Positions 6,968-63,388 of a stretch of DNA of 64,000 nucleotides are shown in pieces. The notes below the pieces were generated by a model. The model was not told the DNA's origin. It ran no database searches and was given only the letters and a program-made list of their open reading frames with translations. Both the position numbers and the translations under genes were made by a program. The DNA is from a virus: IMG/VR virus record IMGVR_UViG_3300049847_000198, positions 48,082 to 112,081 of that record. The stretch is one strand, 5' to 3'. Numbering within the stretch: position 1 is the stretch's first letter; each line of letters starts with the position of its first letter.

Positions 6968-7030
6968 CACTAGCCAGACGGGATTGGTTCTGCCCACGAG
7001 TGCTCTTTCTGGCCTTGAGACACATTAAAA

Positions 7031-7102
7031 TGCGACGTGACGGAATCGAACCGCCTTTCAGGGAGTTGAAAATCCCTTGCATGACCAATCTGCCAACGCC
7101 GC
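7031..7102 (-). tRNA. tRNA with an 8-nt anticodon loop (Glu-UUC, UCA or CAA reading)
   Basis: 72 nt. The acceptor stem GCGGCGT pairs with ACGTCGC (one G-U pair) and the discriminator is A. The D arm is GCA/TGC around a loop with TTGG. The anticodon stem AGGGA/TCCCT is perfect but closes over eight bases, TTTTCAAC. The T arm GGCGG-TTCGATT-CCGTC is good. CCA is not encoded. The extra loop base leaves the anticodon open: TTC gives Glu, TCA a UGA reader, CAA Leu. Eight-base loops are known from +1 frameshift suppressor tRNAs. Confidence 0.8.
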
Positions 7103-7108
7103 ACGAAC

Positions 7109-39794: not shown

Positions 39795-40616
39795 CTACCG
39801 AAAGTAATTCATCGCTTTGATTCCGACGTAAGCAAGGATGTCGCTCTCTCCGCGTTCTTTTGCGTCAAGAAAACGGTGCTTGCCTTCGATCACGAGAGGC
39901 CCGTCAATCGACATCGGATATCCAGAATCCACCATGATTGGACCAACGGAATTCGAGCGTCGGCAATACCTGTCCCCGATAATCGAGACATCGCTCATGT
40001 CGATCCGCTTCAGAAAGAAAACTTCTGAAGAAACAACGTCCACCGGGAAAACGTCTTGCATTAAACGGACTTGCCCTCCACTGATCGTTTCCGGGAGTTG
40101 AATTATTCCACAATTCAAGCACCTATCGAAACGAGTTCTCGCATTCTCAATTGCTTCGCACGGCTCATATCGCACGCACGGTTCTCCGCGAACAGCGGAA
40201 GAACTGACGCATCGCAAATACTTCGGAGGTATCAGGAAAATCTGCTTGAGATTTTCGATTGGCGGTGACTCGTATTTAGCCTGAGAGAGACCAGCCTCGT
40301 ACTCGAAGTCTTTTTTGTCTCGAATACCACGAATCAAAGTCACATCAGAATTATGGAATTCGTCTCTTATTGATTTCAGGAACTCGGATATTTCACAAGC
40401 CTTAATGCTTAATCCGATCGGCATCATGCGAAGCAACATTTCGTATCGCTCAGCCTCGCTGTGCCGATGTCTTTTCGTTGGATGCTTTCCGATGATAACG
40501 AAAAACTTGTCGTAATCATGGATCGACTGACAAACGATCCATTTGTGGCCAGCCGTAGGCGGATCAAAGCTGCCTGTAAAAACCCCGATGGTCACTTTTC
40601 TCTGACTCGTTACCAC
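39795..40616 (-). CDS. CoaD-like nucleotidyltransferase fused to a ParB-like tail
   Basis: 273 aa. Residues 1-150: VTIGVFTGSFDPPTAGHKWI (the TxGH nucleotide site), RYEMLLRMM, LIRGIRDKKDFEYEAGLSQA and PPKYLRCVSSSAVR (the S-S-S/T motif), all as in phosphopantetheine adenylyltransferase. A middle Cys pair CLNCG follows. The C-terminus PLVIEGKHRFLDAKERG resembles a ParB/Srx box. It probably transfers an adenylyl or cytidylyl group to a sugar- or pantetheine-phosphate; the neighbours favour a sugar. Confidence 0.65.
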   Translation of the reverse strand: MVTSQRKVTIGVFTGSFDPPTAGHKWIVCQSIHDYDKFFVIIGKHPTKRHRHSEAERYEMLLRMMPIGLSIKACEISEFLKSIRDEFHNSDVTLIRGIRDKKDFEYEAGLSQAKYESPPIENLKQIFLIPPKYLRCVSSSAVRGEPCVRYEPCEAIENARTRFDRCLNCGIIQLPETISGGQVRLMQDVFPVDVVSSEVFFLKRIDMSDVSIIGDRYCRRSNSVGPIMVDSGYPMSIDGPLVIEGKHRFLDAKERGESDILAYVGIKAMNYFR

Positions 40617-41491
40617 ATCGTTCCGATCTGATAAGCGTGGATTTCCTCATACGTCACAGGCTTCGTGCCGTAGCGTCCGCTTTTGATCGCTGCCGCAATC
40701 GACGCGACGTGGCAGGCTTCTTTCCAGCTTTCTCCAAGAAGACGCTCAACGACCAACGCGGAAATGAATTGGTCCCCAGCGCCAACGGTGTCCACGGGAC
40801 GCTTGCAATACGCCTCGATCAAGAACTCCATCTGATCTGACATTGCGGGATAGAAGGCGACGCCTCCTGCGCCCATCTTGAAAACCATGTCGTGCATCGT
40901 TCGATAGTTTTGGTCCGTGCAGATTTCTGAGTCACCGCCAACAATCACATGGCTGTTCATGGTTGGGTGCGTCGTCCTACACGGATCAATGAAAGTCGCC
41001 CATTGTTCTTGAGTAACCAGCTTCACGAGATCGCGATTCACGACGCCTTTGCCGTGGTCTTGGATAATGACTGCGTCAGGCTTGAACTCTTGGATTCGCT
41101 TAACGAACACTCGTGCGTCGTTTGCGTCACATTGATACCCGCAGTCCCGGTCGAACCGAGCAACGAGATGACGCTGCCCATCACGGATGTCGAAGTAGCG
41201 TTTCTTGACTGTTGTTGCATGTTCTCCATTTGCGATCAGCTTTGTCTCGATGTCTCGTTGAATGCACTCGTCTGAAATTCTGCCGCCTTGACCGTCTTTT
41301 CCAACGACTCCGCACAGAACAACTTCTGCTCCGAGAGCCTTGCACATCGCGGCGACGTTGCCGGCACCGCCAAGCGAGTATTCTTCGGACTGTTCCTCAA
41401 AAGCGATGACCGGGCCTTCTGAAGCAACCTTCTTCGCTTTGACGAAGATGTTGTGATCCAAAAGAACGTCTCCAAGAACGGCTATTCGCAT
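40610..41491 (-). CDS. PfkB-family sugar kinase, HldE/RfaE N-domain-like
   Basis: 293 aa from ATG at 41491. MRIAVLGDVLLDHN opening, SLGGAGNVAAMCKALGA (PfkB signature 1), VIIQDHGKGVVN and VDTVGAGDQFISALV (signature 2 with catalytic Asp in GAGD). Closest to D-glycero-D-manno-heptose-7-phosphate kinase. The adenylyltransferase half that is fused to it in bacterial HldE is a separate gene at 47071. Confidence 0.75.
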   Translation of the reverse strand: MRIAVLGDVLLDHNIFVKAKKVASEGPVIAFEEQSEEYSLGGAGNVAAMCKALGAEVVLCGVVGKDGQGGRISDECIQRDIETKLIANGEHATTVKKRYFDIRDGQRHLVARFDRDCGYQCDANDARVFVKRIQEFKPDAVIIQDHGKGVVNRDLVKLVTQEQWATFIDPCRTTHPTMNSHVIVGGDSEICTDQNYRTMHDMVFKMGAGGVAFYPAMSDQMEFLIEAYCKRPVDTVGAGDQFISALVVERLLGESWKEACHVASIAAAIKSGRYGTKPVTYEEIHAYQIGTMW

Positions 41492-41739
41492 CTCGCACAT
41501 CCTCCGCAATGCTTGCGAAAAACGCGATCAAGACCACCAGACACAAAGTCTCGACGCAACGTAGCAATCGCAATCGCCATTAACTCCATGATCTCTTGGT
41601 GGTTCACCTCAAACTGCCGAACCTCTTTACCGAGTCGCGCAATCCGTTCTTGGACTTTCCAGTCAAGCGGATCATACCCACCACAAGCATCTGCCAGTTT
41701 CTTAGACGCCTTGCAGAACTTCACTCCGTCAGAGTTCAT
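41482..41739 (-). CDS. Small helical hypothetical protein
   Basis: 85 aa from ATG at 41739 (ATGA overlap). Helical with HCGGCARCE at the C-terminus, a possible metal site. Between the methyltransferase and kinase genes; role unknown. Confidence 0.55.
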   Translation of the reverse strand: MNSDGVKFCKASKKLADACGGYDPLDWKVQERIARLGKEVRQFEVNHQEIMELMAIAIATLRRDFVSGGLDRVFRKHCGGCARCE

Positions 41740-42392
41740 GGCACGCCTCCATTCCAAAGAACCCCTAGTCCATGCGGAACGAGGTGATGCGGTATCTCAA
41801 GTCCATGCCAATACGGATGATCTTCTTGCCACTTCGTGAAACCCACACCAACGTCGCCGCCTTCAAGCTGGATGTCGTGAATGAGAATGCAAGAGTTCGG
41901 GAGATTCGACAACCACCAGACAGCGTTCGATATATCCTTGTAGACCGCCTCTGCGTCATGTTGTCCATCAATAAAGATGCAGTCGAACTGCATGACCGAG
42001 TTAGCGCCGATGCGACCTTGGAGAATGTTCTGGCTGTTCGTTCTGTGGTAATGAAACTGGCCGTCAAACCCGCTGTGTCTTGTCCCGCAAATGTTCGAGT
42101 AAAGGAAAGCACCGCTGTCTCGATCTGGATTGTATTCCGCACAGTCCAAGTCGATGATCGAAATCTTTTCCGGTTTCCAGCCGCAGCACTGCATGGCGTA
42201 TGACTCAGTCGTGCCGAATAGCCCGCCAATCGCCAAGTATCGCTTCGGATTCAGCCTGCCGATGATCTCTCCAAGAGAACATACATACGTCTTTTCCATG
42301 ACAGGATCGACATACGGAGACCCGATCGGCGTAGACGCCTTGAGTGAAGAACGCTTGTCTTCGACGTGATTCAAGAAATCAAAGTCGATCAT
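41736..42392 (-). CDS. Class I SAM methyltransferase-like protein
   Basis: 218 aa. YLAIGGLFGTTESYAMQ (motif I), ISIIDLDCAEYN (motif II acidic residue), FDCIFIDGQHDAEAVYKDI and CILIHDIQLEGGDVGV as in sugar/lipid-type methyltransferases (Methyltransf_24). Probably methylates a sugar or small molecule; substrate unknown. Confidence 0.6.
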   Translation of the reverse strand: MIDFDFLNHVEDKRSSLKASTPIGSPYVDPVMEKTYVCSLGEIIGRLNPKRYLAIGGLFGTTESYAMQCCGWKPEKISIIDLDCAEYNPDRDSGAFLYSNICGTRHSGFDGQFHYHRTNSQNILQGRIGANSVMQFDCIFIDGQHDAEAVYKDISNAVWWLSNLPNSCILIHDIQLEGGDVGVGFTKWQEDHPYWHGLEIPHHLVPHGLGVLWNGGVP

Positions 42393-42402
42393 TGCGATAC
42401 CT

Positions 42403-43314
42403 TCAAACCGTTAAGACATCAGGAAGAGAGAACGAGACCATGCAATGACTGTTGAGAGTAACGTATGACTTCTTGAGCTTTCCGTGGCCGCAATAAAGAG
42501 CAGACATAACCGCCTTAGCAGTTTTTTTAGGGATGTATTTCCATCCCAGCACTGCCGCGATTTTCTCGATTTTCGATTCATCGTAAAGATTGACGCTTCC
42601 GCCATTCGATACGAGAAACCTAAAAACTCCATGCCAAGCAATCACGTCCCGCCTGTTTACCGGCGACACTCTGTTTTCTTGCGGAGAAGGAATTATCGCT
42701 AACGCCTTAGATGCCTCCCATCCAGCCTTCAGACGATTGAATATCGTAGTCTTGTCAATGCCCGTCTCTTTTGCCCAATCCTCAAGGCACTGCGTCCTGC
42801 CTCCGAATGTAATCCACCTGTTTGTGGATTTATTGAGAGATTGCTCTCGACTGGTAGCCCATCGACAGTTGACGGGTTCGTAGTTTCCGTCGTTCTCAAT
42901 CCTTTCGATGCTGTGCTTTCTTGATGGAGGATGACCCATGTCTTCTAGGAACGCCTCAAACGAATTGAGCCAGCGCTGACACACGCCTATGCCTCTACCT
43001 CCGTAGTCTGGAAACCCTCGACGATTACTGTTTGTGCATCTCTGGATCATTCCATTCCAGATTCCATACGTTCTTGAATTAGACAGACCGTGAGTCGTCG
43101 CTATTTCGCGAATCCTCTGGCTTCTGTAGCAACCACATGAACTTGATTTACCGTTTAACACATTTCTGAGCAGTACGTCTTTTCTTTTTCCGCATTCACA
43201 AACGCAAGACACCTTTGAAATAGAGCGATTTTTGTACCCGTCGCAGATAGATTCTACAACAAAACGACCGAATTTTTTGCCGATATACATTTCGGGACCA
43301 GAAGAATCGTTCAT
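42403..43314 (-). CDS. HNH/AP2-type homing endonuclease
   Basis: 303 aa. N-terminal zinc finger (VSCVCECGKRK... SSSCGCYR), then GMIQRCTNSNRRGFPDYGGR, VCQRWLNSFEAFLEDMG, SIERIENDGNYEPVNCRWAT, the standard phage HNH-homing block, then a modular helical C-terminus (AKETGIDKTTIFNRLKAGWE). It sits between two methyltransferase genes and starts on the stop of the upstream one. A mobile invader of the sugar operon. Confidence 0.85.
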   Translation of the reverse strand: MNDSSGPEMYIGKKFGRFVVESICDGYKNRSISKVSCVCECGKRKDVLLRNVLNGKSSSCGCYRSQRIREIATTHGLSNSRTYGIWNGMIQRCTNSNRRGFPDYGGRGIGVCQRWLNSFEAFLEDMGHPPSRKHSIERIENDGNYEPVNCRWATSREQSLNKSTNRWITFGGRTQCLEDWAKETGIDKTTIFNRLKAGWEASKALAIIPSPQENRVSPVNRRDVIAWHGVFRFLVSNGGSVNLYDESKIEKIAAVLGWKYIPKKTAKAVMSALYCGHGKLKKSYVTLNSHCMVSFSLPDVLTV

Positions 43315-43889
43315 GTTTTCCTCAACACAATCGTCAGACTGTAGTTTCCTGGTGAATGCTGCCCTTTGGCTGGAGGATACCAGCCTTCGATGTCCAGTTC
43401 AAAAAACACCTCTTCCGCATCCGGGATCGCTCTTGCAATCGTCGCGCGCAACCCCTTCGTGCAAGGCGGTTCGTCATCGTTCTCTACATAGAAAAATGCG
43501 TGCTCTATATTCCAAACTGAAGGAAGCTCCTTCTTGCGTTCGTAGTGATCGCGTGATGGCACGGAAACACACATGAGGCCATTCGGCTTTAGAACTCGCC
43601 ACCAATTACGGACCGCCGTAATTGGGTCTTTTAGATGCTCCAATACGTGACTGGCGTATAGATGACTGATTGATCCATCTGGAACACCTTCAAGATAAGT
43701 CGCATCACCGTCACCGAATATCACATCCCACGGACGCCAATTTGGAGTCTCGTGGATTCGGTCATGCTGGCATCCGACATCAAGGCCAGATTCGGCGTTC
43801 TCTGGCATGTACTTATCGAACCAGCCTGTCGCCAAGCGGCGAGCACGAACCTTGGACGTCTCGCCGCGAATCACGATTTCTTCAGACAT
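43311..43889 (-). CDS. Class I SAM methyltransferase
   Basis: 192 aa from ATG at 43889, chosen for the TGATG overlap. AESGLDVGCQHDR (motif I), VIFGDGDATYLEGVPDGS, LYASHVLEHLKDP and WWRVLKPNGLMCVSVPSRD are Methyltransf_11 hallmarks. Sugar O-methylation or carboxyl methylation would fit the operon. Confidence 0.75.
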   Translation of the reverse strand: MSEEIVIRGETSKVRARRLATGWFDKYMPENAESGLDVGCQHDRIHETPNWRPWDVIFGDGDATYLEGVPDGSISHLYASHVLEHLKDPITAVRNWWRVLKPNGLMCVSVPSRDHYERKKELPSVWNIEHAFFYVENDDEPPCTKGLRATIARAIPDAEEVFFELDIEGWYPPAKGQHSPGNYSLTIVLRKT

Positions 43890-44785
43890 CACAGTGCTCC
43901 GTTGTAGAACTTCATCTCTTGGTAAGAAAGAACTGGCCGACCAGTGATCTTCGCAATCACTTCCGCCTGATGCTGGCACGACTCGGCAAACATCATCGCG
44001 TTCGGGCGGTCCATGTAGACCCTCGCCTTGCGTGTCGCACTGCCGCCGTTCAGGTCACGCTGCTCTGGCGTGTTGCACGGACACATATTCAACGATTTGT
44101 AGCGTATGCCGTGCTTGGCCAGCCACGCTTCCGTCTGTGGTCGGTACTTCTCAAGCCTGCCTGTCACGATCTCGCCGATCTCAAAAGAAGGTTTCATCAG
44201 CGGCTTCGTGGTCTCCAAGTGCCGCATGTATTCATCAGCCTTGTCGCCTGTCTCGTAAGTGAATGGCCAGTCTTCACACAGTACACCGTCCATGTCTACG
44301 AGCGTGTTCTCCAAGAACCAGTGGTGATGCCAGTTCCACTCAAAAACATGGTCGATGTCGCCGACGTTCAGGAAGTAATGATCGACAATATGTTTCGATT
44401 GCTCCATTGCGTAGACGACGGCGTACTGAATTGGGACGACATCGCCAGTCATTTCACGAGACTCTCTTCCAAGTCTCTGTCTCTCTGTCTGAATTTGACC
44501 ACCGCCGCATACCGTATCGTCAACGACAAGAATCCTTCCGCCGTCTTTTGCGAACTTTGCGTGACACGCACGCCTCTTGCTAGACAACCAAGGCTTCGAT
44601 CCAGACAACAACTCATCCGTGCTGAGCAAGTGAATGTTGCGTTCCGCCATCAACATCGACGCCACGATCATGCCTGAGCGTCCGCTGCCAGCAACAGCGA
44701 TGATGTCTTCAGGAAGACGCCGAGACCATTCTCGGATGTCCTGTGCGAGTTGAGCGTATGTGCGAAACATCAAAGGCTTACTCAT
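43889..44785 (-). CDS. Phosphoribosyltransferase-HAD phosphatase fusion
   Basis: 298 aa. N-domain: IIAVAGSGRSGMIVASMLMA and ILVVDDTVCGGGQI, the PRPP loop of type I PRTases. C-domain: NTLVDMDGVLCEDWPF, HAD motif I, with later IVTGRLEKYRPQTEAWLAKH and a conserved CPCNT loop. Could couple nucleotide or sugar-phosphate salvage to dephosphorylation. Fusion is unusual. Confidence 0.7.
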   Translation of the reverse strand: MSKPLMFRTYAQLAQDIREWSRRLPEDIIAVAGSGRSGMIVASMLMAERNIHLLSTDELLSGSKPWLSSKRRACHAKFAKDGGRILVVDDTVCGGGQIQTERQRLGRESREMTGDVVPIQYAVVYAMEQSKHIVDHYFLNVGDIDHVFEWNWHHHWFLENTLVDMDGVLCEDWPFTYETGDKADEYMRHLETTKPLMKPSFEIGEIVTGRLEKYRPQTEAWLAKHGIRYKSLNMCPCNTPEQRDLNGGSATRKARVYMDRPNAMMFAESCQHQAEVIAKITGRPVLSYQEMKFYNGAL

Positions 44786-45002
44786 TCACTCTGCCATTCA
44801 AAGTGAGGCGCTCGATTGCGTCGTCTTCTGCTCGTTTGCGATCGCCGTGCCAAGATCGACACCTCGGACGCACATGATTTGTGACTTTTGCAAGCTGCGA
44901 CATCCAGTCAGAACCTGAACCGTAGACGATCGACTCTCTGTCTGTCTCGTCACGAAACACAGTTACATAATAGCCGCGAAAAACTTCTTTCACTTCAGAC
45001 AT
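44778..45002 (-). CDS. Small hypothetical protein
   Basis: 74 aa, charged, with FRGYYVTVFRDETDRESIV. Overlaps both neighbours slightly. No family recognised. Confidence 0.5.
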   Translation of the reverse strand: MSEVKEVFRGYYVTVFRDETDRESIVYGSGSDWMSQLAKVTNHVRPRCRSWHGDRKRAEDDAIERLTLNGRVNE

Positions 45003-45784
45003 TTATCTACCTCTTCAAAAACCGATTCCGCACTAATCTTCGCGATCTGACCGCAACCATTGCGGTCGCACTTCTTATCGCGAAAAACATTACCATAAAC
45101 GCAACCAGTACACGGATCGTCCTCTGGCGGAGTAATACACGTCACGCAGTCGGCGGCATGGGAGTAAGCGTTCGGTCGAGTCGGACCAAGAACGACAATC
45201 GTTTTCTTGCCAAGCGTTGCCGCAACATGCGCGTACCCAGAATCAATCGCCACGACAACATCCGCCATGTCGATAATCGCCGCCACATTTCCCCACAACG
45301 CCCCACAATTCGCCTTCCTTAAGAACGAGGCCGAACCGAGCAGCTTCAACAGCTTCAAGAATCCATCGTCCCACCGTCTCGATTTGTCCTCGACTTCCAT
45401 GCACAGCAGAATCCTTTTGCCGAGATAGCCGCTCGATCCAGACCACCAGTCCTTCGCGTACTGACGCTCACCTTCCGTGATGTGAAGCTGTGGACGCCTT
45501 GGCTCTGCGTTGATCCTGAAGTGACGGCGGATCAAGTCGATTCGCGGAACCGAACCTCGGCATTCAACCTCGTGTCCGAAAATCGGAGACGGACTTCTGC
45601 CGACGACTCGTTCAATGTTCTCTTCGCCGAGCAGGCTCAAGACATCTTTCTTGTTGTCAGAACGGAGTCGCATTTCGCCTTCTGTGCCCTTCGTGTTGGC
45701 GATAGCGTGAGCTAGAAGAATGACATCGCCAACTCCACAAAAGTTCGGGCCGTGATCGACGTTGATGTAGTTTAGGTATCTCAC
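44990..45784 (-). CDS. GT9 heptosyltransferase-like protein
   Basis: 264 aa from GTG at 45784 (GTGA overlap). VVVAIDSGYAHVAATLGKKT and IVVLGPTRPNAYSHA are the GT9 nucleotide-sugar signature (D-x-G-x-x-H-x-A). N-terminus NVDHGPNFCGVGDVILLAHA fits the acceptor domain. C-terminal CTGCVYG...CDRNGCG adds Cys pairs. Predicted to use an ADP-heptose-like donor. Confidence 0.7.
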   Translation of the reverse strand: MRYLNYINVDHGPNFCGVGDVILLAHAIANTKGTEGEMRLRSDNKKDVLSLLGEENIERVVGRSPSPIFGHEVECRGSVPRIDLIRRHFRINAEPRRPQLHITEGERQYAKDWWSGSSGYLGKRILLCMEVEDKSRRWDDGFLKLLKLLGSASFLRKANCGALWGNVAAIIDMADVVVAIDSGYAHVAATLGKKTIVVLGPTRPNAYSHAADCVTCITPPEDDPCTGCVYGNVFRDKKCDRNGCGQIAKISAESVFEEVDKCLK

Positions 45785-46176
45785 TTCTGAATCATCTCCA
45801 TCACCATCGGTCCCACCACGTTCCAATCAACAAACGGTCTTCCGCCGCTTCTTGGGTTTGTCTTCAGCGGGCAACCAAACGCAGCATCGTCGATATAGAG
45901 ATGCGCGTAACACTTCGGGGACGAAGTCCAAGAAGACTGTTCTGGATTCGAGTTGTGCGACCAGAACTCAATGCCACGCTCTTTGCACCACTCGATCGCT
46001 TCTGTCAGCGGATTGAATCCATCTTCCCTGCCGTCGCTTCGCATTGTCCAAAGAACCAGCTTCGCTCCGGCTTCTTGGAACTCCTTGAGATACTTAAACG
46101 CTTCGGGAACCTCGTTTCCGATCTCAGGAAATCGGTGGTCGCAAAGCGTGCCGTCAAAGTCGATCGCAATAATCAT
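45781..46176 (-). CDS. HAD phosphatase-like protein
   Basis: 131 aa. MIIAIDFDGTLCDHRFP (motif I DxDGT), KLVLWTMRSDG (motif II), HLYIDDAAFG (motif IV acidic pair). Minimal HAD without cap. In an ADP-heptose pathway a HAD enzyme (GmhB) removes the C7 phosphate; this is a candidate. Confidence 0.75.
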   Translation of the reverse strand: MIIAIDFDGTLCDHRFPEIGNEVPEAFKYLKEFQEAGAKLVLWTMRSDGREDGFNPLTEAIEWCKERGIEFWSHNSNPEQSSWTSSPKCYAHLYIDDAAFGCPLKTNPRSGGRPFVDWNVVGPMVMEMIQK

Positions 46177-47078
46177 CGCGGAGTCTTTCCGTGATTGAAC
46201 GCCAATCTCTTCTGCGCCGCCTCAAAGATGTCCTCGGCGTCCGGTTCAGGTCCGTGATACTCAACGAAACTCCAGTCGTCTTTGTTCGCCTCCCAAGCGT
46301 CGTGGTGAATGTCGCTCACCAGATACCAAGCGTTCGGATTCGGGATACAGCAGTGGACTGGTTGAATCTGACGGAACACGCCGAGACACGGAACGTCGGT
46401 AAACGAAGCCAGATGAAACGGTCCTGAATCAACGCCGATCATCAAGTCGCTCATGTAATACAACGCACACAGCCAATCGAGACCGATGCGTCGCCAGTTC
46501 TTGTGCGTCTTCACTCGCTCATGCGGAAAAGACGGTTCCGACTTCACTGCGTTCAACTGCACGATGCTTCCGCCAGTTCGATCCAGCCACATCTCCATGA
46601 ACTGCTTTGTTGTTGAATGGTCGAGGTTTTTCTTGGTTGAAAACGAATCTCCGCAGGTATGCAGCGCCATGATTGGTCGTGGCAAATCCTTGACGAATTC
46701 ATCGACAGCGCAAGACGCCTCTTGTGAGATGCACCCATCAGAAACAATGCGAACATGACAAAGTTCTTTCCATGTCATTTCTGGATCGCCCAACGGAGGC
46801 ATCAGTTCGTCATCAAGACCTTGCATCGGCTTGTTTGTGACCCACACGGGCAGGTCCATATTGCCCCACGACTCGCGATAACGCCACTTGTGAAACGCCT
46901 CGGACGGATTCATCGGAACATGCCGCACTTCGGCGCAATCGAAAATGAAATCTCGATTTTGGTTCACGCTGACATGAATGTCGTATCCGCGTGCTTTGTA
47001 AAGCTGCAACAGGAACGCCATGTGGACCGCGTCGCCCATGCCCGCCTCGAAACGGAAACGAATTTGCTTGTCAGGCAT
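46173..47078 (-). CDS. GT9 heptosyltransferase-like protein
   Basis: 301 aa from ATG at 47078. RFEAGMGDAVHMAFLLQLYK (N-domain), MALHTCGDSFSTKKN, then LMIGVDSGPFHLASFTDVP, the GT9 donor site. Two GT9 proteins in one cluster suggests successive additions to a glycan. Confidence 0.7.
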   Translation of the reverse strand: MPDKQIRFRFEAGMGDAVHMAFLLQLYKARGYDIHVSVNQNRDFIFDCAEVRHVPMNPSEAFHKWRYRESWGNMDLPVWVTNKPMQGLDDELMPPLGDPEMTWKELCHVRIVSDGCISQEASCAVDEFVKDLPRPIMALHTCGDSFSTKKNLDHSTTKQFMEMWLDRTGGSIVQLNAVKSEPSFPHERVKTHKNWRRIGLDWLCALYYMSDLMIGVDSGPFHLASFTDVPCLGVFRQIQPVHCCIPNPNAWYLVSDIHHDAWEANKDDWSFVEYHGPEPDAEDIFEAAQKRLAFNHGKTPR

Positions 47079-47499
47079 TCTTGATTCTTTCAATCATTTG
47101 AGTCGTGCTCTCGTCTGGGCCTTCGAGAAAAACAAGAGGAATCTCAAGTTCTCGGCACAACGCAATCTCAGGCATATTTGATTCGTTCCACGTATCAGGC
47201 TTGCCCTTAGGGAAGCCCTTAAAGACAAGGTTCGGCATCAACCTCCGAATCCAGTCCGATGGTTCGCTATCTGGCATCGGCACAACCAAATCAACGCAAC
47301 GCAGCGACTCAATCATCTGCTTGCGAGTCGCAAACGGGACTATCGGACGAATCGATCCCTTTAATCGAGAAACCGATTCGTCCGTGTTTAGTCCAACAAT
47401 CAACACGTCGCATTGCTGCTTGCATCGCTCAAGAAATGAAACGTGATGCGCTCCAAGCAAGTCGAAACAGCCGTTCGTGAATGCGACAAGGCGAGACAT
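47071..47499 (-). CDS. HldE C-domain-like nucleotidyltransferase with altered HxGH
   Basis: 142 aa from ATG at 47499. FTNGCFDLLGAHHVSFLERC aligns with the D-glycero-beta-D-manno-heptose-1-phosphate adenylyltransferase domain, but the HxGH site reads GAHH; the DNA is unambiguous. VDLVVPMPDSEPSD and a late ESTTQMIERI match the rest. It would make ADP-heptose if active. Confidence 0.7.
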   Translation of the reverse strand: MSRLVAFTNGCFDLLGAHHVSFLERCKQQCDVLIVGLNTDESVSRLKGSIRPIVPFATRKQMIESLRCVDLVVPMPDSEPSDWIRRLMPNLVFKGFPKGKPDTWNESNMPEIALCRELEIPLVFLEGPDESTTQMIERIKNA

Positions 47500-47550
47500 G
47501 TACACTGGTCTCTCAGGTTCAAGCCAGACTCAAGGCGACGATCGCTCTCA

Positions 47551-48254: not shown

Positions 48255-48989
48255 TCAATCGGCTGCGTGAATCTCAAGAGATTGCCCAACCGGCTTCCAG
48301 GTGGCACTCACTGTCGCGTTGTCGAAGTAATAGCGATTTTCGTCATCCAGGTTGTTCCCGTCGAGATACCAAGGAATATGCCTCGCACAATACGGAGGTG
48401 AAGACCGGACTGTCGGCACGGCAATCTTTGTTGCTCTTTCATGCGGAGTGTAGCAATCATAAACAGCGAAAGTCGTGTCGATCCACGCAGAAAAGAAACC
48501 ATCCCGAACAGGCTTAGTCCACCACTGCGACTCCCATTCAAAAACAGATGACTGCCAAGAGGGGAGATCGTCGATCCTCAATGACAGCCCGCTCTTTACT
48601 ATCCCGTGGCCCCACGAAAAAGGTTCGGCAAGGACGCCAAGTGCGTCCACTGGGACATCACACAAATCAAGGTCACAGTCAGTGACGACGTACTTCGGTT
48701 GGCCCCAATTCTTAATGAACGATGCTGGTGATGGAATGTGCCTCCAGGGGGCGTGCTTGCCGACATTCTCTCCTAGTTTGAAAACTTCAAATGGGCAATT
48801 TGAAAGATAGTCAACAAGAGGAGGCCACGTAGAGTCATTGTCTACAATGATCGGCACAGCATCATCTAAGCAAGAGCACTGCTCAGACAGAATCCTTGTT
48901 GTCGTCAATCTGTTTCTGACGTTTATGTAAATCGGAATTGGCACTTTCGCCTCTAGCTGTCTTCCATTGATAAAAATCGGGAACAACAT
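48255..48989 (-). CDS. GT-A-like glycosyltransferase
   Basis: 244 aa from ATG at 48989 (or 48965-49013 alternatives). IPIYINVRNRLTTTRILSEQ, AVPIIVDNDSTWPPLVDYL, VVTDCDLDLCDVPVDALG hold the DxD-type metal site. Related to sugar-transfer proteins in phage and LPS clusters. Its start overlaps the upstream gene by 107 nt in another frame. Confidence 0.6.
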   Translation of the reverse strand: MLFPIFINGRQLEAKVPIPIYINVRNRLTTTRILSEQCSCLDDAVPIIVDNDSTWPPLVDYLSNCPFEVFKLGENVGKHAPWRHIPSPASFIKNWGQPKYVVTDCDLDLCDVPVDALGVLAEPFSWGHGIVKSGLSLRIDDLPSWQSSVFEWESQWWTKPVRDGFFSAWIDTTFAVYDCYTPHERATKIAVPTVRSSPPYCARHIPWYLDGNNLDDENRYYFDNATVSATWKPVGQSLEIHAAD

Positions 48990-50004
48990 GATTTCGCCAG
49001 TAATCAGGACCAAATGATCTCTGGCTTGCGAAATCGTGGCAAAGGCACGCGGCCTCAGATTCAGAACAGATCAACCCTGGCCACTCCTCGGAGTGCCATC
49101 TCTTATCTGATTCGTACCTCCAATCACGCGAAAAAACATCAGAATTCCTGAACCAATAAAAAGATCCCGCGTAAAACCACTTGTAACGCTGGCGCGCAAA
49201 CAGCGGTTCATGACACTTCATGGGACCGGCAAACGAGTGAGACTTTAATGCGTCTTCTACGCTTAACCAATCAAGGCAAGTATCCCACATCAAGCTGGCC
49301 CACTCTTGCTCAAACCCGCCTTCTTTGTGAGTCACCCCCTTACTGTGACCACGAAGAGTAACCGTATTCTGGTCTTCGTTTTTTATGGTCTCAAGAAGTT
49401 TGTTGAAAGTCAGCGTCTCGGCAAGATTATTGTTCTCCGTTACCACCCAATCGCTCACTGGAACTCCGTTAAACAATTCTTTCACATCATCAATAGACGA
49501 TGTGTATTGGCTAACAGTAACGCCAATCGCAATCTTGCCATTAAAAAGATCGCTTTTTTCTCGAATCTTCTGGATGTGCCAGTGCCAATTCCACTCAGCG
49601 CCAAGCATGGGGTACAGGTGGAAGATCAGATTTCTTTTTGGTTTCACTAGCGGTCTTCGATTCTCGTTATGCCTGAACCACATCCCCGCTGGGCACTGCT
49701 CCGACCTCCACGAAATCTTCCCGCTGTTCAATGCGTTCTTCTTGAGAGGGCATTCGCACAGAGAGCATGTATCATCGACATTGTGAGGGCACGAACGACA
49801 TCGTTCCTGACGAAAAACGACATCAGAAACTAAAGCACTAGCTGTATCGACTGCTAGATACCTCTTCATAGCATCAGCGTACAACTTTGACCGATCTATT
49901 GAACCAAACTTTCTGCCTTGGCCACTTGGTCTACCTCTTGAAGATCGACCTTGCGACTTCCTGAGAATTTCTTTCCTTGGACCACGAACAGTAGAATTAG
50001 ACAT
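48883..50004 (-). CDS. Glycosyltransferase-associated protein with zinc module
   Basis: 373 aa. Basic N-terminus, then CRSCPHNVDDTCSLCECPLK, a zinc-binding cluster, then HLYPMLGAEWNWHWHIQKIR and NGKIAIGVTVSQYTSSIDDV opening an alpha/beta body with WFYAGSFYWFRNSDVF. Context and fold suggest sugar transfer; the family is not certain. Start ATG at 50004. Confidence 0.5.
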   Translation of the reverse strand: MSNSTVRGPRKEILRKSQGRSSRGRPSGQGRKFGSIDRSKLYADAMKRYLAVDTASALVSDVVFRQERCRSCPHNVDDTCSLCECPLKKNALNSGKISWRSEQCPAGMWFRHNENRRPLVKPKRNLIFHLYPMLGAEWNWHWHIQKIREKSDLFNGKIAIGVTVSQYTSSIDDVKELFNGVPVSDWVVTENNNLAETLTFNKLLETIKNEDQNTVTLRGHSKGVTHKEGGFEQEWASLMWDTCLDWLSVEDALKSHSFAGPMKCHEPLFARQRYKWFYAGSFYWFRNSDVFSRDWRYESDKRWHSEEWPGLICSESEAACLCHDFASQRSFGPDYWRNHVVPDFYQWKTARGESANSDLHKRQKQIDDNKDSV

Positions 50005-50011
50005 TTGTCAC

Positions 50012-52771
50012 CTACTTATGAATCGCCAACGTCTGCGGTCGTTCTTGGCTACCATGACGAGAGTGTTGATACCAGCGGAACAGTTGCAACCACCAGTTGG
50101 CCGGCAACGCACCGAATTCAGCGGACGTGCGACGTAACGCCACCGGCAGGCTTAGTTGGTCGCGATGCGTGCCTGCTGAGACCTCGGACCACCAAGCACG
50201 ATTGAACTCATCGCACGCACCATGACCGCGACGGATCAGAATACCTCCCAACCAGAGTCCCCAATGTGCCGGGTGTCCCTCTTGGTTGTACCGTTGCAGT
50301 TGGTGTTGCACGTTGCTTGCCACGTCGTCGTGTCGTCGCACCAGTGCCGTCGCCTCGTCGTATATGCAATCGCGTTCTTGGTGTCGGAAGAAGTACATCG
50401 GCTTGTCACCTCCCCACGCCTCGCACTCGGCGAGTACATCCAGAGGATCTACTGCGAGTTGCAATTGTCCGTCGTGGTAGATCGTCCAGTCGGCTTCTGG
50501 GAACAGATCCGGCCCCAGAATCTTCGGCTGGCGTGATCGGTGCTTCGGTGACAGGTGCGTGACGTTTGGCCGCAAGATCTCCCACGGCGAGGGTACGTTA
50601 TTAGCGTCGGTAATCGCGACGTATCGGACGTTCGGATTGACGACGAGAGGCCGTCGAATCTGGTCGTAACCGTTGATGACGACCGTGTAGACAACGATCT
50701 GCTCAGTGACGGCTCGCAGCGGGTCGATCAACTTCGGCATCACCTGCCGATAGTGCTCGACATCATCACCCAGCCACCTCCGCAGCATCTTGAAGTCATG
50801 GTCTCGCACGTCATTGGCGGAACTGCCGCCGCCACTCGCTCGACCGGGCATCTGTTTCATGCCGACGTTCAGCGGTTGCTCAAGATCATGCCGGCGACCT
50901 TTAACAAGATCCCAGAAACGCAAATCAACCGAGCGATGATCGGACTTGCAAGCGGCGATGAACTGCGGAAGCACATCGCGACGAAATCCAGTGCGACAGA
51001 GGCTCGCGTGCTTGTGTGTCGTGTAGATGCGATAACGGCCCTCTCGCGGCCAGTAGTAGGTTGTCAGACCGCAGCCGACAAGAGCGTCATCGTCGAGCCA
51101 GCCGTTCATTCGCTCGATGTATTCCGGAGCGTACCACTCGTCGTCTTCGATGATCAAAACTCGATCGTGCTGGATGTGCGGAATCGCGATTCGCAGGTTT
51201 CGCGAAAGCGTGTGACCCTCGTTTCGTCCCGGCTGGCGGCGAATGTATTGCTGTCCGGCCGTGCATTTCGTCGGCACTCGGCCATCGTCAACCACGATCC
51301 ATTGAATCGGTCCCGTGAATGTCTGGCGAGCCATCCACCGCTCGCATAACGCGAAGGCTTCCGGTCGATCTCCCGTCGGAGTGATCAGCGTAACGCCCTT
51401 CTCGCCATCCACAAACGACTTCGCCCGATGTGCTCCGTTGTTTCCGAGAGTGCTCTGCTGCCCCGTGTGCTGAAGAAGGCTCGGCCAGTGAACGTACTCG
51501 GTGAAGCCCGCGTCCGTCATGCACTGCCAAATCATTCCGTCCACGTTCCGCCAAGCCGGTGAGCGGCCTCCAATCGAAGTGACCTTCTTTGTCAGATGCG
51601 GAGCCGTAAGTAGCGAGGCTATCGCCGCACGATCAAAAACGATGCCCTGCGATCCGAAACCTCGATCGAGTGCAGGCTGCCAACCGTCGTCGGTCAGTCG
51701 CTCGTTTCGTCGCGACGTGTAGAGGTTGAGGTACGCCTCTCCGGGCCACGCCATCGTCTCAAGTCGCGTTCGCAAGTCACGCACGGCTTCAACGTCGTCC
51801 TCAAACATGATGTATCGGTCAGCGTGCGGGAAACGGACGTAGAGTTGCCACAACGACGTGATGAACGACCCGACCGCTCGCAACGCTGGCGAGTAGTTCG
51901 TGACCTCCAATCCCATGCTGCGAATCACCGATACGTCATCAACGCCGTCCGCGAAGATCCAAGGCTTATCAAACCCCGCCGCCGCCAGCGAATCGAGAGT
52001 CGCTTTCAGTGTTCCATCGTCGATCCTCGCCTGCACGGTTCTCACACCGTAAACAAACTCCACTTTGCCGACGTTACTCGCTCGCCCGGAGTGCCGCTCA
52101 CAGGAGAAGCACGACCGCACGCCGTTGATTGCGTGTCGCGTCTGACATTCTCCGAACAACGAACAACCACGCACGTCGAACGTCTTTGTGCCGCCGCCGC
52201 AGCACGTCGGCAAATCAACCGTGCGAACAACGTCACCGAGGTATTGGCAATTGCCGACCACCGGAGGCGACCCTTTATGAATCACTCCTGAACGCAATGA
52301 TTGGACCGATTGCGGTTTCTTCTCTGGAGACCAGCTTGCGATGTACTCCGCCCGTTTCGTTTCGCTGATGTTGACGCCGCGACAAATCTGCACGTCGCGA
52401 GCTTTCATGTCGCGCTTATGACGTGAGCAGAATCCACGGACAGGACATTCGCAGCCACGACCGAAATCTGTCTTATCGGCTTCGGCAGCGTCGATCGCCT
52501 TCGTAACCAGCGTGGGGAATGGATCGAACCAATTCACCTCGAACGCGAGTCCCGTTTGAACAGCCTTCGCCGCCGCTCGAAAGCGAGCACTCCAACCGAA
52601 AGAATCGACGCCGTCACGGAGCCATTGCACGATCTCCGCGTGATGTTCACGACACCCGTTTACGCCCCATTCATCCATCTGCCGGACGTGCTCTGCACAC
52701 GGGCACTCGGCCGTAACGACGATCCCAAGGCTGTTGAGAATGGATTTGAGTTGTGAACCGGGTCCGCTCAT
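50012..52771 (-). CDS. Multi-domain glycosyltransferase (two GT-A-like domains plus DUF616-like)
   Basis: 919 aa. Residues ~1-240: Cys-rich, with ECPCAEHV, CECPVRGFCSRHK and CSLFGEC...CFSCERH. ~250-460: first GT-like domain with RYIMFEDDVEAVRDL. ~470-680: GT2-like, VTLITPTGDRPEAFALCERW then VLIIEDDEWYAPEYIERM. ~700-919: DUF616-like, VYTVVINGYDQIRR, DWTIYHDGQLQLAVDPLD, FFRHQERDCIYDEA. Likely builds a chain of two or three sugars. Confidence 0.7.
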   Translation of the reverse strand: MSGPGSQLKSILNSLGIVVTAECPCAEHVRQMDEWGVNGCREHHAEIVQWLRDGVDSFGWSARFRAAAKAVQTGLAFEVNWFDPFPTLVTKAIDAAEADKTDFGRGCECPVRGFCSRHKRDMKARDVQICRGVNISETKRAEYIASWSPEKKPQSVQSLRSGVIHKGSPPVVGNCQYLGDVVRTVDLPTCCGGGTKTFDVRGCSLFGECQTRHAINGVRSCFSCERHSGRASNVGKVEFVYGVRTVQARIDDGTLKATLDSLAAAGFDKPWIFADGVDDVSVIRSMGLEVTNYSPALRAVGSFITSLWQLYVRFPHADRYIMFEDDVEAVRDLRTRLETMAWPGEAYLNLYTSRRNERLTDDGWQPALDRGFGSQGIVFDRAAIASLLTAPHLTKKVTSIGGRSPAWRNVDGMIWQCMTDAGFTEYVHWPSLLQHTGQQSTLGNNGAHRAKSFVDGEKGVTLITPTGDRPEAFALCERWMARQTFTGPIQWIVVDDGRVPTKCTAGQQYIRRQPGRNEGHTLSRNLRIAIPHIQHDRVLIIEDDEWYAPEYIERMNGWLDDDALVGCGLTTYYWPREGRYRIYTTHKHASLCRTGFRRDVLPQFIAACKSDHRSVDLRFWDLVKGRRHDLEQPLNVGMKQMPGRASGGGSSANDVRDHDFKMLRRWLGDDVEHYRQVMPKLIDPLRAVTEQIVVYTVVINGYDQIRRPLVVNPNVRYVAITDANNVPSPWEILRPNVTHLSPKHRSRQPKILGPDLFPEADWTIYHDGQLQLAVDPLDVLAECEAWGGDKPMYFFRHQERDCIYDEATALVRRHDDVASNVQHQLQRYNQEGHPAHWGLWLGGILIRRGHGACDEFNRAWWSEVSAGTHRDQLSLPVALRRTSAEFGALPANWWLQLFRWYQHSRHGSQERPQTLAIHK

Positions 52772-62260: not shown

Positions 62261-62412
62261 AAAAGAAGCCTTCAAACACGAACGATGTTCCGGGAATGGT
62301 TTCGACGGGACGAACAAAAGAGTCCAAGCATGGATTCGTTCTTTACGAAGTTCGACTCAGCGACGGTAGTTTGACTTGGATTTCCGTTCCACCAAACGAC
62401 ACGAATGAATAA
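62257..62412 (+). CDS. Small hypothetical protein
   Basis: 51 aa from ATG at 62257. Lys-rich start, then GFVLYEVRLSDGSLTWISVP. Overlaps the next gene by 8 nt. No family recognised. Confidence 0.55.
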   Translation: MKKKPSNTNDVPGMVSTGRTKESKHGFVLYEVRLSDGSLTWISVPPNDTNE

Positions 62413-63388
62413 TCGCATGGACGACGAACAAAGAGTCGAGCAGATGATCGCTGACGGCAAGCAGATCACTCAGCAAGCCATTGAGCACTTCAATCCAATC
62501 GCCGTGATGTCGGCGTATTCTGGCGGCGACGATTCCATCGTCAGCACGCACTTCGGATGCGAGAACTTTTCTTCAGGAGTCGTTCATTGCAGAACAGGAA
62601 TCGGAGTCCAGAAGACTTACGATCATGTTCACGCGGTCTGCGAAAAGAGAAGCTGGAGCCTGTCAGAGTATTTCGCGAAGCCTGAAGGCAAGCGTGCTTA
62701 TGCGAAGGTTCGCAACGCTTCTGGAAAGCTAACCAGAATCCCGTGTGACGGTTCAGTGTTTCCTGGAGGCAAGTGGACTGACGGCGCAACGTCCTATGAA
62801 GAATACGTTCTGAACTTCGGATTTCCGGGACCAGCGCAGCATGGGCGTATGTTTCAAAGACTGAAGCAACGCGGCTTGAACGCCATGCGTCGCGACCTTA
62901 AACGTGGCCACAAGAAAACTGATTGCATTCTGGTTATTAGCGGCATCAGAGGTGACGAGTCAGCGATTCGTGCTGGCTACAAACGGGCTGTTCAGAAAGA
63001 CGGATCACTTGTTTGGGTGAACCCTTTCTACTGGAAGACGGCGGCTGACTTTGAAGCGTATCGTCAAGAGTTCGGCCTGCCGAGAAACCCGGTCAGCAAG
63101 ATCATCGGCATCAGCGGAGAGTGTCTTTGTGGAGCATTTGCCAGTGAAGGCGAACTGAACCTTGTCGAGAAAGTTGATCCGCAGATTGCGGCGTACATTC
63201 GAGAACTTGAGACTCGCGTTGCCGCTCAAGGCTTCCCGTGGGGCTGGGGTTCTGGTGGCCCACCGAATTGGTGGTTGAAGGCGAAGCGTAACGCAAAGAT
63301 CGGACAGGCCGCTCTCTTTGAAGAATATGAACCATCGTTCATGCCGATGTGTGTCGGCTGTGTTCGCAAACGAATTGTGCGTGCGTGA
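62405..63388 (+). CDS. PAPS-reductase/DndC-like PP-loop protein
   Basis: 327 aa. SAYSGGDDSIVSTHFGCENF holds the PP-loop SGG-D-DS; ILVISGIRGDESAIRAGY is the second family motif. Cys pairs ECLCGAF and CVGCVRKR near the C-terminus could bind a cluster. Relatives reduce PAPS or take part in DNA sulfur modification (DndC). No other dnd gene is seen here. Role in the phage unknown. Confidence 0.7.
   Translation: MNNRMDDEQRVEQMIADGKQITQQAIEHFNPIAVMSAYSGGDDSIVSTHFGCENFSSGVVHCRTGIGVQKTYDHVHAVCEKRSWSLSEYFAKPEGKRAYAKVRNASGKLTRIPCDGSVFPGGKWTDGATSYEEYVLNFGFPGPAQHGRMFQRLKQRGLNAMRRDLKRGHKKTDCILVISGIRGDESAIRAGYKRAVQKDGSLVWVNPFYWKTAADFEAYRQEFGLPRNPVSKIIGISGECLCGAFASEGELNLVEKVDPQIAAYIRELETRVAAQGFPWGWGSGGPPNWWLKAKRNAKIGQAALFEEYEPSFMPMCVGCVRKRIVRA

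What the first reader, a model, noticed from the sequence alone, without database searches (positions are those of the whole stretch)
39795..47499. Phage ADP-heptose-like synthesis and transfer island
Heptokinase-like (40610), nucleotidyltransferases (39795, 47071), HAD phosphatase (45781), two GT9 proteins and methyltransferases lie in one ATGA-coupled minus run. This matches most steps from heptose-7-phosphate to a transferred sugar; only an isomerase (GmhA) is not seen. Phage-directed surface or DNA glycosylation is likely.
Basis: partly seen in the sequence, partly recalled or inferred. Interest (0 to 1): 0.65.

Follow-up and report, generated by a model that had tools for sequence, protein, structure and literature searches.

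The report
Phage sugar-nucleotide and glycosyltransferase operon
A virus of bacteria carries a run of genes that look able to activate a seven-carbon sugar and attach it to something, a kind of gene set already known from ocean cyanophages, but its activating enzyme has an unusual rearranged active-site motif that recurs in a few other phages and deserves a bench test.

Summary
The observation largely holds. The window is part of a 112-kb tailed-phage record. Its minus strand carries an almost gapless run (about 39.8-55.3 kb) with an HldE-type PfkB kinase (40610), an HldE/HldC-type nucleotidyltransferase (47071), a small HAD phosphatase (45781), two GT9 proteins and two methyltransferases. Corrections: 39795 is CoaD (PPAT)-like, not a heptose enzyme. 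The HAD protein is BT0820-type, not GmhB. GmhA and an NDP-sugar epimerase were not found in the record. The same three families (phrog_8133, 7878, 1238) form a cassette in cyanophage S-SSM7, and viral ADP-heptose enzymes and phage LPS clusters are published, so the system is a known kind. The new point: the nucleotidyltransferase reads GAHH where 38 of 38 viral relatives read HxGH. GxHH recurs in three other phage records, which form a clade even with the motif columns removed. In all four records a related GT9 gene lies within about 2.7 kb. It is probably a functional variant, not decay. The sugar and the acceptor are inferred, not shown. DNA glycosylation has no support.

The parts
39795..40616 (-). 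CoaD/PPAT-like nucleotidyltransferase (TAGH motif) with an unassigned ~125-aa C-terminal domain; by eye the C-terminus looks ParB-like, no Pfam hit
40610..41509 (-). PfkB sugar kinase of HldE N-domain / HldA type; GGAGNVA, KKR, RFDRD, DHGKG and GAGD motifs present
41482..41757 (-). small ORF, 91 aa, unknown
41736..42392 (-). class I methyltransferase (Methyltransf_24)
42403..43314 (-). HNH endonuclease, likely an inserted free-standing homing-type gene; atypical codon usage (z -2.3)
43311..43979 (-). methyltransferase (Methyltransf_11); true start probably the ATG near 43889
43889..44785 (-). phosphoribosyltransferase-like N-domain (weak: PRK09177 7.7e-6) fused to HAD-like C-domain (weak: phrog_415 1.4e-4, phrog_1238 0.049)
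44778..45002 (-). small ORF, 74 aa, unknown
44990..45826 (-). GT9-like glycosyltransferase (IDSGYAH motif)
45781..46176 (-). small HAD phosphatase, BT0820 type, phrog_1238; DFDGT and IDD motifs intact
46173..47093 (-). GT9-like glycosyltransferase of phrog_24975 (VDSGPFHLAS motif)
47071..47505 (-). HldE C-domain / HldC-type nucleotidyltransferase with GAHH (codons GGA GCG CAT CAC) in place of HxGH; TNG, NTD, LKG, KG and STT kept
48255..49013 (-). glycosyltransferase-like by eye only (TDCDLD); no family hit
48883..50004 (-). unknown protein with Cys-rich N-terminus and HSKGVTH-like stretch, perhaps a glycosyltransferase; no family hit; atypical codon usage (z -3.1)
50012..52771 (-). 919-aa protein with GT2 and TOD1/MUCI70 glycosyltransferase domains

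Best explanation
This is a phage glycan operon. The HldE-type kinase phosphorylates a heptose-7-phosphate (or a close sugar phosphate) drawn from the host. The small HAD removes one phosphate. The GxHH nucleotidyltransferase couples the sugar-1-phosphate to a nucleotide, most likely AMP. One or both GT9 enzymes transfer the sugar, and the methyltransferases may decorate it. The acceptor is a surface: the phage's own virion protein or the host envelope, most plausibly made late in infection. Shown here: family membership of each gene, intact kinase and HAD motifs, mostly intact substrate-binding motifs of the nucleotidyltransferase, the altered HxGH motif and its recurrence, and the recurrent kinase-nucleotidyltransferase-HAD grouping in other phages. 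Inferred: enzymatic activity, the identity of the sugar, order of steps, acceptor, and timing.
For: Kinase and nucleotidyltransferase score best against rfaE domain I and II among NCBIfam models. The kinase alignment keeps the HldE signatures. Cyanophage S-SSM7 carries a kinase of phrog_8133, a nucleotidyltransferase annotated as heptose 1-phosphate adenyltransferase and a HAD of phrog_1238 within 3 kb (window). About 22 marine viral contigs, mostly one nucleotidyltransferase clade, carry kinase-nucleotidyltransferase-HAD in direct succession. [quoted passage not shown] GT9 genes occur in 6 of 17 other viral records carrying HldE-like proteins. GxHH recurs in three other phage records, and the GT9 genes near two of them are the closest relatives of 46173 among the ORFs compared. 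Sugar genes have the codon usage of the rest of the phage (z +0.5 to +0.9), so they are not a fresh insertion. Viral heptose enzymes tested by others make ADP-heptose (PMC11573728, PMC11461863).
Against: The first His of HxGH is missing, and by established knowledge that residue is catalytic in most of this superfamily. All HldE-type scores lie below the curated equivalog cut-offs (142.5 of 345; 108.6 of 181.5 bits). GmhA, GmhB and an epimerase were not found, so the host must supply them or the sugar is different. The kinase and nucleotidyltransferase genes are separated by about 5.5 kb. No close relative of the phage exists in the collections, so conservation of the whole operon could not be tested. 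The acceptor and the host are unknown.
Confidence: 0.5

Rival explanations
1. The operon makes a different activated sugar (not heptose). The HldE scaffold was recruited for another phosphosugar, with the GxHH motif part of the new specificity.
For: No GmhA or epimerase; GxHH motif; in L078 and L081 the KGG heptose-1-P motif is also lost and the GT9 motif DSGPxH reads DSGPGK.
Against: The window's own protein keeps KG and its GT9 proteins keep the His; best profile matches are to heptose enzymes.
Confidence: 0.25
2. Same chemistry, but the acceptor is specifically the host envelope (LPS or capsule), to block superinfection or change the receptor, as proposed for cyanophage clusters. This is a sub-reading of the best explanation, not exclusive with it.
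For: Iyer et al. 2021 propose this for PfkB kinase + HIGH nucleotidyltransferase + GT clusters (PMC7824862); GT9 is the heptosyltransferase family of LPS core.
Against: The operon runs on from genes at 52768 and 54375 that look virion-related by eye, and no membrane transport component was recognised; host unknown.
Confidence: 0.35
3. The nucleotidyltransferase is catalytically dead (decayed or regulatory) and the operon no longer makes an activated sugar by itself.
For: GAHH in place of HxGH; 38 of 38 relatives with a readable motif keep HxGH.
Against: GxHH recurs in three other phage records with the rest of the domain conserved; these three form a supported clade without the motif columns (95/91); other motifs intact; codon usage normal.
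Confidence: 0.2
4. The sugar goes onto phage DNA.
For: Phage DNA glycosylation by GTs is known in other phages (cited in PMC12619734).
Against: No thymidylate synthase/hydroxymethylase-family gene in the record; GT9 is not a known DNA glycosyltransferase family (own knowledge).
Confidence: 0.04

Closest known systems
Cyanophage S-SSM7/S-SSM6a sugar cluster (GU071098, SSSM7_126-134) and P-SSM2-type 'LPS' clusters (Iyer et al. 2021, PMC7824862)
   Same: Same PHROG families for kinase and small HAD, an HldC-like nucleotidyltransferase, a methyltransferase, beside structural genes
   Different: The window lacks the epimerase (not found by profile); no cupin or carbamoyltransferase was seen; it has two GT9 genes, a PRTase-HAD fusion, a PPAT-like protein and a GAHH motif
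HldE / HldA + HldC (RfaE) of Gram-negative bacteria
   Same: Both domains are the best-matching curated families
   Different: Split and separated genes, short kinase, scores below equivalog cut-offs, GxHH for HxGH
Viral NDP-heptose biosynthetic enzymes (Tang et al. 2024, described in PMC11573728 and PMC11461863)
   Same: Virus-encoded heptose kinase and nucleotidyltransferase without GmhB
   Different: A HAD of another type is present here; the residue before STT is Glu, so the STTR5 hallmark of NTP promiscuity is absent; GxHH
Phage records G001/L078, G002/L081 and G314/L136 of IMG/VR
   Same: GxHH nucleotidyltransferase with a GT9 relative of 46173 nearby
   Different: Kinase fused to nucleotidyltransferase; in L078 and L081 KGG is lost

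Membership tests
HldE C-domain / HldC heptose-1-phosphate adenylyltransferase | Best match to rfaE_dom_II above its curated cut-off | tested here: not met
   Best match but 108.6 bits against cut-off 181.5
HldE C-domain / HldC heptose-1-phosphate adenylyltransferase | HxGH nucleotidyltransferase signature | tested here: not met
   GAHH; so filed as an HldC-like variant, not as HldC
[quoted passage not shown]
   TNG, NTD, KG, STT present; SEPS and KGF in place of EXTP and KGG (motifs from PMC7993394)
HldE C-domain / HldC heptose-1-phosphate adenylyltransferase | Makes ADP-heptose | not testable with these tools
   Needs enzyme assay
HldA / HldE kinase domain | PfkB family with GAGD and HldE motifs | tested here: met
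   PF00294 7.7e-24; TIGR02198 best NCBIfam hit; motifs aligned
HldA / HldE kinase domain | Equivalog score cut-off | tested here: not met
   142.5 of 345 bits
GmhB phosphatase | Match to GmhB-type HAD-IIIA family | tested here: not met
   BT0820-type HAD best at 6.1e-27, HAD-IIIA only 0.02; PDB hit 2obb
GmhA isomerase | SIS_2 protein in the genome | tested here: not met
   No hit at E<=10 in the 112-kb record
GT9 glycosyltransferase | PF01075 over gathering score with D-x-G-x-x-H motif | tested here: met
   40.7 and 23.8 bits, cut-off 22; DSGYAH and DSGPFH
CoaD / PPAT (39795) | TIGR01510 equivalog cut-off | tested here: not met
   79 of 103.3 bits; still the best match by far
Cyanophage kinase-nucleotidyltransferase-HAD cassette | phrog_8133 kinase, phrog_7878-type nucleotidyltransferase and phrog_1238 HAD in one gene cluster | tested here: met

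The most novel reading that the evidence does not exclude
Phages hold a distinct clade of heptose-type nucleotidyltransferases whose catalytic HxGH has been replaced by GxHH. The enzymes are active, with the displaced histidine taking over phosphate binding, and they work with a dedicated GT9-like transferase (phrog_24975 type) to build a phage-specific glycan.
Probability: 0.3. Interest if true: 0.55.

Novelty: new variant of a known kind. Interest (0 to 1): 0.4.

Why it matters
Phages with ADP-heptose-type enzymes are known, but what they make and where it goes is open (PMC11573728 says so for viruses). A recurrent change in the most conserved catalytic motif of the nucleotidyltransferase, found near a GT9 gene in all four known cases, gives a compact, expressible test case: four natural GxHH enzymes against many HxGH relatives. 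The recurrent small HAD also offers a candidate for the phosphatase that the survey did not find in viruses (PMC11461863).

Tried and rejected
Searches for close relatives of the kinase, PRTase-HAD, terminase and GT9 46173 in IMG/VR, and of PRTase-HAD, GT9 46173, terminase, 48255 and 48883 in phage GenBank records: none. Portal in GTDB genomes: none. Host from the TnpB-like transposase: hits at 33-49% to archaea and cyanobacteria, uninformative. GxHH in 292 cyanobacterial genomes: none; other bacterial phyla could not be reached. Structure prediction of 48255 and 48883 from single sequences failed (pLDDT 33), so no fold search was run. Idea that GAHH is a sequencing error or decay: judged unlikely because GxHH recurs. 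Idea that the window's GAHH shares one origin with the other three: neither shown nor excluded; with motif columns it groups (87/87), without them it does not. Promoter and terminator scans were not above shuffles. A relaxed DNA pattern for GxHH gave 39 stretches, of which only L050 and L052 were nucleotidyltransferases.

Full report
WHAT IS THERE. The window is bases 48082-112081 of a 112,081-base linear IMG/VR virus record. It is a tailed phage: major head protein, portal, terminase large subunit, head-tail adaptor, UvsX- and Erf-like recombination proteins and a clamp were found. It has no close relative in the collections searched with terminase or portal. The minus strand from 55262 down to 39795 is an almost gapless run of genes.

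GENE BY GENE. 40610 is a PfkB kinase whose best NCBIfam hit is rfaE domain I (1.5e-41, below the equivalog cut-off) and which keeps the HldE motifs. 47071 is an rfaE domain II-like nucleotidyltransferase (2.3e-31, below cut-off). 45781 is a small HAD of the BT0820 type and phrog_1238; the 'phosphoheptose isomerase' label of that PHROG does not fit its HAD motifs. 44990 and 46173 are GT9-like. 41736 and 43311 are methyltransferases. 39795 is CoaD-like with an extra C-terminal domain. 43889 joins a weak PRTase-like domain to a weak HAD-like domain. 42403 is an HNH endonuclease with atypical codon usage. Upstream, 50012 holds GT2 and TOD1/MUCI70 domains. SIS_2 (GmhA), epimerase and thymidylate synthase families were not found in the record, but the record is linear and may be incomplete.

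PRECEDENT. In cyanophage S-SSM7 a nucleotidyltransferase, a kinase of phrog_8133 and a HAD of phrog_1238 lie within 3 kb, with a methyltransferase-like gene and an epimerase. About 22 marine viral contigs have kinase, nucleotidyltransferase and HAD in direct succession, often after a cupin; most are one clade, so they count as few independent cases. One contig (L010) has kinase, GmhA and nucleotidyltransferase together. Iyer et al. 2021 describe PfkB kinase + HIGH nucleotidyltransferase + glycosyltransferase clusters in phages and propose surface modification against rival phages. Tang et al. 2024, as reported in two commentaries, found viral heptose enzymes functional and no viral phosphatase. 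The system is therefore a known kind.

THE ODD MOTIF. 47071 reads NGCFDLLGAHH, encoded GGA GCG CAT CAC. Of the relatives found from it in IMG/VR, 38 of 38 with a readable motif have HxGH. A DNA-pattern scan for NGxFDxxGxHH found two more nucleotidyltransferases, both GPHH and both fused to a kinase: L050/L078 and L052/L081. The latter contig has tail and head genes. A search with an alignment of the three nearby GT9-like proteins then found a fourth, L136, reading NGCYDLLGAHH, also fused to a kinase. That search was aimed at the GT9, so L136 cannot count as independent evidence for the GT9 link, only for the recurrence of the motif.

GT9 LINK. Among ORFs of the compared records, the best matches of 46173 are the GT9-like genes near the L078 and L081 nucleotidyltransferases (4e-10 and 2e-5), and all three hit phrog_24975. 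These two records were found by motif alone, so here the link is not built in. The link is not exclusive: the same GT9 family also sits in records with HxGH nucleotidyltransferases and in records with none.

TREE CONTROL. With all columns the first three GxHH rows group (87/87). With the four motif columns removed the window no longer groups with the others, although L136, L078 and L081 remain a clade (95/91) and the window's highest identity is to L136 (44%). One origin for the window's GAHH is neither shown nor excluded. Either way, recurrence with an otherwise conserved domain argues against decay.

MECHANISM. Most likely: host heptose-7-phosphate, kinase, HAD, nucleotidyltransferase, GT9, acceptor. 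The residue before STT is Glu, not Arg, so by the rule reported for these enzymes ATP specificity is expected; this is inference. The acceptor is inferred from position only: the operon continues from genes at 52768 and 54375 that look virion-related by eye (no family hit). Host-envelope modification is about as likely. Sugar identity, activity and acceptor are untested.

LIMITS. Single metagenomic contig, unknown host, no close relatives, long branches in the tree, bacterial genomes sampled for GxHH only in cyanobacteria.

Noticed in passing
42403-43314 and L128:3219-3959: The HNH endonuclease inside the operon has a relative (9e-40) directly before the GT9 gene in another GxHH phage record, as if homing nucleases sit repeatedly in such glycan clusters.
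   Followed up: partly
39795-40616: CoaD-like nucleotidyltransferase fused to a C-terminal domain that looks ParB-like by eye; no Pfam hit for that part.
   Followed up: partly
43889-44785: PRTase-like plus HAD-like fusion; PRTase and HAD pairs are linked to Ter-type systems in PMC7824862; no relative found here.
   Followed up: partly
7030-7103: ARAGORN reports a tRNA with a four-base anticodon (ttca).
   Followed up: no
62405-63388: PAPS reductase-like protein (phrog_424, PF01507).
   Followed up: no
L042:12901-14106: TnpB-like transposase (phrog_506) in the rest of the record, relatives at 33-49% in archaea and cyanobacteria.
   Followed up: partly
L129, L152, L155: Other phage HldE-like nucleotidyltransferases near GT9 genes read NGCFR or NGVFR instead of NGCFD and lack STT: further active-site variants.
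   Followed up: no
45781-46176: The PHROG annotation 'phosphoheptose isomerase' (phrog_1238) is attached to a HAD phosphatase family and is probably wrong.
   Followed up: partly
L078, L081: GT9-like proteins beside GPHH enzymes read DSGPGK where GT9 has DSGPxH.
   Followed up: partly
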